NCBI GenBank assembly: GCA_029433525.1
Contig: JAQTIF010000002.1
Coordinates: forward strand, 186,001-250,000
DNA length: 64,000 bases
Direction of reading: 5' to 3'
Source of the DNA: Enterobacteriaceae bacterium ESL0689
GTDB lineage: Bacteria > Pseudomonadota > Gammaproteobacteria > Enterobacterales > Enterobacteriaceae
The position numbers were made by a program, and so were the translations under genes. Below are positions 1,281 through 59,542 of this stretch, one piece after another; the stretch's first letter is position 1; each line of letters begins with the position of its first letter. The notes under the pieces were generated by a model. It saw only the letters and a program-made list of their open reading frames with translations, was not told the DNA's origin and ran no database searches.

Positions 1281-1424
1281 GAGCCTATCCCATTAGGCGT
1301 TATTGGCACAGCCAGCTTGGACACGGACAGCGCGCAGAAACCGCAGCGTACACGGAGTACGTGAGGATTTCGAGCACTGCCCAGGGACAAAATGGCAAGT
1401 AAAATAGCCTAATGGGATAGGCTC
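1281..1424. repeat. 144-bp intergenic repeat with 18-bp perfect inverted ends, copy R1
   Basis: The ends are perfect inverted repeats of 18 bp (GAGCCTATCCCATTAGGC and its complement). The interior carries a conserved core, CGCAGAAACCGCAGCGTACA and onward, ending in a short ATAGCC motif. Three more diverged or shortened copies occur in the window (near 40.1, 41.2 and 59.5 kb). R1 is the best preserved. It has no coding potential and lies between the convergent uge and ugd genes, typical of a non-autonomous intergenic repeat family. Confidence 0.85.
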
Positions 1425-1462
1425 TTAGTGAGGTTGTTTAAATAACCAGCACAAACAGTTAA

Positions 1463-24206: not shown

Positions 24207-24280
24207 GCGGGCGTAGTTCAATGGTAGAACGAGAGCTTCCCAAGCTCTATACGAGGGTTCGATTCCCTTCGCCCGCTCCA
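24207..24280 (+). tRNA. glyU: tRNA-Gly (anticodon CCC)
   Basis: A 74-base cloverleaf with encoded CCA. The acceptor stem GCGGGCG pairs with CGCCCGC, the D-arm begins GTTCAATGGTAGAAC, the anticodon stem AGAGC/GCTCT encloses TTCCCAA (anticodon CCC), and the T-arm is GAGGGTTCGATTCCCTT. It reads GGG codons. It appears identical or nearly so to E. coli glyU. An IS3 remnant begins about 190 bp downstream, but no duplicate of the tRNA 3' end is visible, so it is not obviously an island attachment site. Confidence 0.97.
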
Positions 24281-37995: not shown

Positions 37996-38179
37996 ATTTC
38001 TCTGAGATGTTCGTTTGCGGGCGAGTCCCCTGAGCCGATATTTCATACCACCAGAATGGGGCGTTACACAGTTGGTGAGCATACCCGGTTTATCCGGGAA
38101 GCCTTAAAACTGTGACGACTCATTCACCTTGAACCAAGGGTTCAAGGGTTACAGCCTGCGACGGCATCCCGGAGATCCC
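37996..38179 (+). ncRNA. ssrS: 6S RNA
   Basis: RNA that mimics an open promoter and sequesters sigma-70 RNA polymerase in stationary phase. The roughly 184-base sequence follows E. coli ssrS from ATTTCTCTGAGATGTTCG through AGTCCCCTGAGCCGATATTT and ACCTTGAACCAAGGGTTCAA to the complementary 3' end CGGAGATCCC. The long closing stem and the central bulge region are preserved with compensatory-looking changes (for example ACACAGTTGG and AACTGTGACG). Co-transcribed with fau. Confidence 0.95.
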
Positions 38180-38881: not shown

Positions 38882-40114
38882 TCAGAACAGCAATCGCGCA
38901 CGGATCGTGCCGGGGATCGCTTTCATCGCCTGAAGTGCCTGGTGTGCCACATCATCCTGCGCTTCAATATCGACCACCACATAACCTATCTGAGGTGAGG
39001 TTTGCAAATATTGCGCCGTAATGTTAATCCCCTGAGTGGCAAAAATCTGGTTAATGGCGGTGAGTATCCCAGGGCGATTCTCATGAATATGCAGTAAACG
39101 ACGCCCACCCAGTACCGGCAGGGAGACTTCCGGGAAGTTCACTGCCGAGAGTGTCGAACCATTATCAGAATACTTTACCAGTTTCCCGGCTACTTCCAGA
39201 CCAATATTCTGCTGTGCTTCCTGGGTAGAACCGCCAATATGTGGCGTCAGCAATACATTGTCGAATTCACATAATGGGGAATCAAACGGGTCGCTGTTAC
39301 TTGCCGGTTCAGCAGGAAATACATCAATGGCGGCCCCGGCCAGGTGTTGACGCTTCAGCGCATCACATAACGCCGGAATATCGACCACGGTGCCACGGGA
39401 CGCATTAATCAGTAGTGCTCCGGGTTTCATCTGCGCCAGCTCTGCTGCGCCGATCATATTTTTCGTCGAGGCATTTTCGGGTACATGCAGGCTGACCACA
39501 TCACTCATTTGCAGGAGATCGGAGAGCTGCGCTACCTGGGTCGCATTACCGAGGGTTAACTTGCTTTCAATATCATAAAAACAGACCCGCATCCCCAGCG
39601 ATTCCGCCAGAATGCTGAGTTGTGTTCCGATGTGACCATAACCAATAATACCCAGTATTTTTCCACGCGCTTCGAAACTGCCCGCCGCCAGTTTGTTCCA
39701 TACCCCACGATGCGCTTTGGCGTTGGCCGCTGGAACGCCACGTAACATCAGCAACAGTTCACCAATAACCAATTCCGCTACCGAGCGTGTATTGGAGAAA
39801 GGGGCGTTAAACACCGGAATACCGCGCTTCATTGCGGCATCTAAATCGACCTGGTTGGTGCCAATACAGAAGCAGCCGACGGCGACCAGTTTTTCTGCGG
39901 CCGCAAAGATCTCTTCTGTCAGATGGGTGCGCGAACGCAGGCCAATAAAATGCGCATCACGGATCGATGCTTTCAGCGCTTCGCTGTCCAGCGCGCCCTT
40001 ATGGTACTCAATATTGGTATAGCCAGCAGCACGGAGACTCTCCAGCGCTTTCTGATGTACACCTTCAACCAGCAGAAATTTAATCTTATCTTTTTCCAGT
40101 GATACTTTAGCCAT
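38882..40114 (-). CDS. serA: D-3-phosphoglycerate dehydrogenase
   Basis: First step of serine synthesis, inhibited by serine. 410 residues, as in E. coli: NAD motif GYGHIGTQLSILAESLG, catalytic Arg, Glu and His (LRSRTHLTEE, DVFPAEP, LTPHIGGST), and a C-terminal ACT serine-binding domain beginning about residue 335 (RLLHIHENRPGIL). It converges on fau. A member of the 144-bp repeat family lies directly upstream. Confidence 0.97.
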   Translation of the reverse strand: MAKVSLEKDKIKFLLVEGVHQKALESLRAAGYTNIEYHKGALDSEALKASIRDAHFIGLRSRTHLTEEIFAAAEKLVAVGCFCIGTNQVDLDAAMKRGIPVFNAPFSNTRSVAELVIGELLLMLRGVPAANAKAHRGVWNKLAAGSFEARGKILGIIGYGHIGTQLSILAESLGMRVCFYDIESKLTLGNATQVAQLSDLLQMSDVVSLHVPENASTKNMIGAAELAQMKPGALLINASRGTVVDIPALCDALKRQHLAGAAIDVFPAEPASNSDPFDSPLCEFDNVLLTPHIGGSTQEAQQNIGLEVAGKLVKYSDNGSTLSAVNFPEVSLPVLGGRRLLHIHENRPGILTAINQIFATQGINITAQYLQTSPQIGYVVVDIEAQDDVAHQALQAMKAIPGTIRARLLF

Positions 40115-40136: not shown

Positions 40137-40262
40137 AGCGTCTATCTCACCAGGCGTTATTGACCCGGACAGTGCGCAGAAACCACAACGTACACGAATA
40201 CTTAACGAGTTCAGACCCTGCCTGAAAGCAAAATAGCCCGTCAATGAACCCTGGTGAGTCAG
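40137..40262. repeat. Intergenic palindromic-ended repeat, copy R2 (diverged)
   Basis: Shares with R1 the phrases GGCGTTATTG, GACAGTGCGCAGAAACC, AACGTACACG and AAAATAGCC, bounded by inverted ends CTCACCAGG and CCTGGTGAG. It is shortened by about 18 bp. It lies only 22 bp upstream of the serA start codon, so serA transcription probably passes through it or starts within it. Confidence 0.75.
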
Positions 40263-41196: not shown

Positions 41197-41323
41197 GAGA
41201 GCCCATCCTACCAGGCGACACCGAGAGCGCGCCGAAACCGCAGCGTACCGGGAGTACGTGCGGTTTTCGGGCACTGCCGGAAGCCAGAGTGGCGAGTCAA
41301 ATAGCCTGATGGGTCAGGCGCTT
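41197..41323. repeat. Intergenic palindromic-ended repeat, copy R3
   Basis: Contains the core GCCGAAACCGCAGCGTACCG, GGAGTACGTGCGGTTTTCGG and ATAGCCTGATGGG in the same order as R1, with imperfect inverted ends (GAGCCCATCCTACCAGGC and GCCTGATGGGTCAGGCGC). It lies 32 bp upstream of rpiA and between divergent rpiA and argP, so it overlaps the likely rpiA promoter region. Confidence 0.8.
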
Positions 41324-59491: not shown

Positions 59492-59542
59492 GAGTCTGGC
59501 CCACCAGACGTTATTAACGCAGCCAGTCTGGGCGCGAACAGC
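59492..59542. repeat. Intergenic repeat, partial copy R4
   Basis: About 50 bp match the left part of R1: GAGTCTGGCCCACCAGACGT, TATTAACGCAGCCAGTCTGG and GAACAGC. The rest is missing. It lies between the small membrane protein and the antitoxin gene, so the repeat family also reaches accessory DNA. Confidence 0.65.

What the first reader, a model, noticed from the sequence alone, without database searches (positions are those of the whole stretch)
1281..1424. 144-bp repeat family with long palindromic ends and four copies in the window
R1 has 18-bp perfect inverted ends and a conserved core; R2 (40137-40262), R3 (41197-41323) and R4 (59492-59542) keep core phrases in the same order while end sequences drift in compensating pairs (for example CTCACCAGG/CCTGGTGAG in R2). 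Paired drift of the ends implies selection for a folded RNA or DNA structure. It is not ERIC, REP or BOX by the sequences I know.
Basis: partly seen in the sequence, partly recalled or inferred. Interest (0 to 1): 0.6.

Follow-up and report, generated by a model that had tools for sequence, protein, structure and literature searches.

The report
Jumping hairpin repeat with swapped ends
The repeat is a short jumping DNA element that folds into a long hairpin; in this genome an ordinary insertion sequence probably moved it recently, relatives with quite different ends but a shared core occur in many gammaproteobacteria, and a few old copies have been kept between genes of the same operons in about 15 to 26 genera with their two halves changing in step.

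Summary
Observation confirmed. R1 is a complete 144-bp element with perfect 18-bp inverted ends and a 3-bp target duplication (TTA). R3 and R2 are decayed copies; R4 is a 51-bp left-end fragment. The genome holds about 130 copies; 62 of 94 examined have an exact TAA, TTA or ATA duplication. A resident 869-bp IS5-family insertion sequence has nearly the same ends and the same target, so these are MITEs very probably mobilised in trans by it (inferred). Elsewhere structural constraint is clear: orthologous copies between nuoL and nuoM (about 15 genera) and between dnaN and recF (about 26 genera) show strong covariation at fixed sites. Across Gammaproteobacteria a core related to Rfam sX9 recurs with quite different inverted ends in each lineage. 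It is not ERIC, YPAL or RU-3. The enterobacterial branch occurs in nearly every E. coli genome and is probably the RSA/BEE95 repeat, an identity I could not verify. New here, as far as I could search: the IS driver, the link to sX9 and differing ends, and conserved intercistronic copies. Function of those (mRNA hairpin or DNA-level site) is open.

The parts
1281..1424 (+). R1: complete 144-bp element (MITE)
   Evidence: 97-99% identical copies elsewhere in the genome; model score 156.5 bits
1278..1280 (.). left target duplication TTA of R1
   Evidence: sequence; 62 of 94 copies have an exact 3-bp TAA/TTA/ATA duplication
1425..1427 (.). right target duplication TTA of R1
   Evidence: sequence
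1281..1298 (+). left terminal inverted repeat GAGCCTATCCCATTAGGC
   Evidence: 15 of first 16 bases identical to the right end of the 869-bp IS5-family element
1407..1424 (-). right terminal inverted repeat
1305..1400 (+). conserved core (element positions 25-120)
   Evidence: profile of these columns alone matches 45 of 49 class-level loci at E <= 0.022; best shuffle E 2.1
1343..1365 (+). hairpin tip GCAGCGTAC-n5-GTACGTGAG (G.T-closed stem; tandem G.A beside it in most relatives)
   Evidence: pattern match; retained in orthologous copies
40137..40262 (+). R2: decayed copy, starting 22 bp upstream of the serA start codon (serA 38882-40114, - strand)
   Evidence: no copy found in the same region of other genera
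41197..41323 (+). R3: decayed copy with left-side deletion, between rpiA (- strand) and the + strand ORF from 41420
   Evidence: 49.2 bits, E 2.8e-9; rpiA identified
59492..59542 (+). R4: 51-bp left-end fragment
   Evidence: 88% to genome consensus, E 1e-13

Best explanation
R1-R4 belong to an old family of hairpin-forming MITEs. (1) Mobility: in this genome the element is moved in trans by an IS5-family transposase that recognises its ends and inserts at TWA with a 3-bp duplication (shared ends and target shown; mobilisation inferred). (2) Modular build: a conserved core is carried between inverted ends that differ by lineage (shown by sequence; exchange of ends between elements inferred). 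(3) Fate: most insertions, including R2-R4, decay, but some old copies in intercistronic gaps (nuoL-nuoM, dnaN-recF) have been retained across genera and evolve with compensatory changes (shown). They most likely serve as intercistronic hairpins acting on the operon mRNA, as reported for ERIC in Yersinia (inferred; a DNA-level role is not excluded).
For: Copy number and near-identity; 62 of 94 copies with exact TAA/TTA/ATA duplication; resident IS5-family element G000:C2:606765-607633, ends GAACCTATCCCAAAAGGA / GAGCCTATCCCAATAGGA, TTA duplication, DUF4096 + DDE domains and IS5 equivalog; matches to the same unit in 39 plasmid records and 305 E. coli genomes, the full 869 bp at about 89% in the best, with TTA/TAA duplications at five sampled sites. 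Class-wide core with unrelated inverted ends (core-only profile); near-identical copies in G227 with different ends and mostly TWA duplications; sX9 above its gathering score at class-level copies. Orthologous resident copies: nuoL-nuoM, dnaN-recF, gene names; covariation 0.265 and 0.269 against at most 0.082 and 0.066 when slid; double changes that still pair 24 of 27 and 115 of 125, expected double changes in all 7.7 and 36.2; internal-loop mismatches retained.
Against: No transposition experiment; no RNA data were available here. The tip sequence is conserved whichever strand is transcribed, and G.T over A.C is 36:16 at nuoL-nuoM but 23:20 at dnaN-recF, not the flip that a purely RNA-level constraint predicts. 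No driver with matching ends was found among PF01609 genes of G227, G080, G232 or G084. No precise empty site was shown for a young copy; at the two sites tested the listed matches still carried the insertion. Class-level loci were picked with a model that rewards pairing, which inflates.
Confidence: 0.72

Rival explanations
1. The hairpin acts at the DNA level: a strand-symmetric binding or cruciform site (as REP/BIME bind host DNA proteins), so orientation to transcription does not matter.
For: Tip and tandem G.A mismatches retained in both orientations to transcription; no orientation preference in this genome, 22 same and 17 opposite; little G.T against A.C asymmetry across lineages once the tip pair is left out (36:26 and 40:46).
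Against: G.T exceeds A.C at nuoL-nuoM; the retained sites lie inside operons; other hairpins stand at the same gaps in genera without the element.
Confidence: 0.2
2. Plain selfish MITE with no host role; covariation reflects paired evolution of transposase-binding ends in active source copies only.
For: Young copies decay without compensation; 3-bp duplications and IS driver.
Against: Covariation extends through inner helices and occurs at fixed orthologous sites, after insertion.
Confidence: 0.15
3. Mutational template switching in the quasi-palindrome copies one arm onto the other, giving paired changes without selection.
For: Long imperfect palindromes are prone to it (established knowledge, not tested here).
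Against: Opposed internal-loop mismatches (tandem G.A, C.A, C.C) persist in 15 to 27 orthologs; little excess of paired changes in the many copies of this genome.
Confidence: 0.1
4. The core inserts into pre-existing short palindromes, so that each copy has its own paired arms.
For: Unique complementary arms per copy in G023/G024; some genera without the core keep a short hairpin at the nuoL-nuoM gap.
Against: Full-length copies have shared ends and 3-bp duplications; the short hairpins can equally be internal deletions (L339-L341).
Confidence: 0.1

Closest known systems
RSA / BEE95 dispersed repeat of enterobacteria (Bachellier and Hofnung 1996, cited as reference B6 in PMC3751351)
   Same: Dispersed intergenic repeat of enterobacteria; E. 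coli genomes that have it carry 1 to 8 copies of the present element, median 5. From memory RSA is about 152 bp with about six copies in K-12.
   Different: Identity not verified: no held paper that I found prints the RSA sequence.
Rfam RF02228 sX9 (Xanthomonas sRNA)
   Same: Its 76-nt model matches one half of class-level copies above gathering score (L145 56.9, L144 51.6, L264 46.7 bits) and 90 places in this genome below it.
   Different: Rfam describes half of the hairpin as an sRNA gene; here it is half of a mobile palindrome. Enterobacterial copies stay below the cut-off.
ERIC / IRU / RU-1
   Same: Palindromic enterobacterial MITE; similar tip (GA, G.T-closed stem) by inspection.
   Different: No profile match; 3-bp TWA duplication instead of TA (PMC2759123 for ERIC).
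YPAL / RU-2 and RU-3
   Same: Enterobacterial mobile repeats of 100-170 bp.
   Different: Published sequences (PMC2759123) give no profile match and no alignment better than E 0.12.
IS5-family insertion sequence, 869 bp, NF033580 type
   Same: Ends and TWA target match the MITE.
   Different: Autonomous; nothing of the MITE core was seen in its interior.

Membership tests
MITE (non-autonomous, IS-mobilised) | short, no transposase gene, terminal inverted repeats | tested here: met
   144 bp, 18-bp inverted ends
MITE (non-autonomous, IS-mobilised) | target-site duplication | tested here: met
   62 of 94 copies exact TAA/TTA/ATA
MITE (non-autonomous, IS-mobilised) | autonomous element with matching ends and target | tested here: met
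   869-bp IS5-family element, 13-15 of first 16 bases identical, TWA duplications
MITE (non-autonomous, IS-mobilised) | mobilisation in trans demonstrated | not testable with these tools
   needs a transposition assay
RSA/BEE95 | sequence identity with the published RSA consensus | not tested
   sequence not found in the held papers
RSA/BEE95 | dispersed copies in E. coli | tested here: met
   5375 of 5426 E. coli genomes carry the present element; consistent with but not proof of identity
sX9 (RF02228) | score above Rfam gathering cut-off | tested here: not met
   not for this genome's copies (best 34.6 of 44 bits); met for relatives L144, L145, L264
ERIC | ERIC sequence | tested here: not met
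   no profile match
ERIC | TA target duplication | tested here: not met
   3-bp TWA duplication
YPAL and RU-3 | published sequence | tested here: not met

The most novel reading that the evidence does not exclude
A folded core spread through much of the Gammaproteobacteria travels by taking on the inverted ends of unrelated local insertion sequences, and its copies are repeatedly captured as working hairpins inside core operons (nuo, dnaN-recF), where the fold, with a strand-independent tip, is under selection; RSA and sX9 would be branches of it.
Probability: 0.4. Interest if true: 0.8.

Novelty: new variant of a known kind. Interest (0 to 1): 0.6.

Why it matters
It ties a neglected enterobacterial repeat to a transposase and to a catalogued 'sRNA', offers orthologous operon sites where the role of a domesticated MITE hairpin can be tested directly, and shows that covariation among repeat copies must be separated from transposition effects before calling an RNA.

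Tried and rejected
ERIC, YPAL and RU-3 kinship. Rfam: no family above cut-off at R1 or at the nuoL-nuoM and dnaN-recF copies; TwoAYGGAY only 23.6 bits. RNA-strand bias: little across lineages without the tip pair. Empty sites by joined flanks on plasmids and E. coli: the listed matches still carried the insertion. Drivers with matching ends in G227, G080, G232, G084: none among PF01609 genes. Text search for core strings in the literature: none. A fuzzy search for ERIC timed out.

Full report
Observation. R2, R3 and R4 are real relatives of decreasing completeness; R4 is only the left 51 bp. The genome (G000, 3.18 Mb, Enterobacteriaceae) holds 133 model matches at E <= 0.01; the first search alone lists 40 copies at 90% identity or more, counting R1 itself. 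R1 lies between convergent genes, R2 starts 22 bp upstream of the serA start codon, R3 lies between rpiA and the next gene. No copy was found in the serA-rpiA region of the other genera fetched.

How it moves. In 94 copies, 62 have an exact TAA (35), TTA (26) or ATA (1) duplication. The inverted-end pattern also marks two IS5-family elements in the same genome. One is complete, 869 bp, G000:C2:606765-607633, ends GAACCTATCCCAAAAGGA and GAGCCTATCCCAATAGGA, flanked by TTA, with a DUF4096 and a DDE domain in two overlapping frames (IS5 equivalog). Matches to this unit are in 39 plasmid records and 305 E. coli genomes, end to end in the best; five sampled copies have TTA or TAA duplications and one E. 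coli annotation names a programmed frameshift. Nearly the same ends and the same target make mobilisation in trans by this element the best inference.

Does the fold matter in this genome? Against the genome's consensus, double changes are little more frequent than expected from single changes (arms 17 against 15.4, core 15 against 9.0), arm mismatches rise with divergence of the core (Spearman 0.64, p 6e-12) and single changes show no preference for G.T over A.C. Copies are mostly intergenic (72 of 79 that could be placed) with no orientation preference (22 same, 17 opposite).

Relatives. The element is in 19 of 60 related genomes by sequence, in 5375 of 5426 E. coli genomes and on plasmids. 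Outside this genome most enterobacterial copies share the core but not the ends, and the ends stay complementary: among 14 copies chosen by sequence alone, 68% of arm positions pair against 43% when 3' arms are swapped (maximum 51% in 2000 trials). With the covariance model, 38 of 185 genomes sampled over Gammaproteobacteria match at E <= 1e-4 (the count includes this genome), many with several copies. Their ends are unrelated to those of R1 and differ between lineages, while copies within a genome such as G227 share ends and mostly TWA duplications. A profile of the core alone, without ends or pairing, finds 45 of 49 of these loci at E <= 0.022; shuffled sequence gives at best 2.1. At three of them Rfam's sX9 model scores above its cut-off. 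Hence a shared core with different ends; exchange of ends is inferred.

Selection on old copies. Several enterobacterial copies proved orthologous between genera. Flanking genes are nuoL/nuoM, dnaN/recF, nrdD/nrdG and cysG/cysD, and qseG/glrK in E. coli. The nuoL-nuoM copy is present in about 15 genera and the dnaN-recF copy in about 26. At these single sites covariation is strong: 24 and 33 of 52 pairs changed on both sides, scores 0.265 and 0.269 against at most 0.082 and 0.066 with slid partners, which keep relatedness. Of 27 and 125 double changes in the inner helices, 24 and 115 still pair, against 7.7 and 36.2 double changes expected in all. Opposed mismatches (tandem G.A at the tip, C.A, C.C) are kept, which speaks against mere template-switch correction. 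Genera without the element often have another hairpin in the same gap (by inspection).

RNA or DNA. At nuoL-nuoM, where the element lies in the sense of the genes, G.T exceeds A.C 36 to 16 (p 0.008, tip pair left out; sequences are related, so this p is only a guide), as for an RNA. At dnaN-recF, where it lies antisense, the ratio is 23 to 20 (from the pair table, tip pair left out), not reversed, and the tip is conserved in both orientations. I therefore rank an intercistronic mRNA hairpin first but keep a DNA-level role open.

Known or new. ERIC, YPAL and RU-3 are excluded by sequence. The enterobacterial branch is probably the RSA/BEE95 repeat (cited in PMC3751351), but I could not compare sequences. 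No paper in the held library contains the core strings searched, and Rfam has no family above cut-off at the conserved operon copies. The IS5 driver, the sX9 link, the class-wide core with different ends and the covarying orthologous copies appear not to have been described, within the limits of that search.

Noticed in passing
L118:1501-1809; L361 and L375 (dnaN-recF): Tandem arrangements of the core: 98-bp-spaced partial copies in L118, and an enlarged dnaN-recF gap (436 and 428 bp) in L361 and L375, with two model matches in L375.
   Followed up: no
L285:1501-1706 (Salmonella plasmid): A copy with about 62 bp of extra hairpin-like sequence inserted near the tip; other Salmonella plasmid records match in the same two pieces.
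   Followed up: no
G227 and G080, e.g. G227:C3:20101-20270: A second size class (about 170 bp) of paired ends identical to those of the 146-bp element; its interior was not read.
   Followed up: no
L239:946 onwards (G000:C1:36442): A second copy of the 869-bp IS5 element whose right part is replaced by another transposase gene.
   Followed up: partly
L326, L328, L329, L335, L349 (nuoL-nuoM gaps): REP/BIME-like hairpins, by inspection, stand in the same intercistronic gap, with or without the present element.
   Followed up: partly
window 37996-38179 and 24207-24280: 6S RNA (RF00013) and tRNA-Gly(CCC), ordinary.
   Followed up: no
hairpin tip, element positions 61-87: By inspection the tip (tandem G.A, G.T-closed 6-bp stem) resembles that of ERIC, but profiles find no link.
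   Followed up: partly
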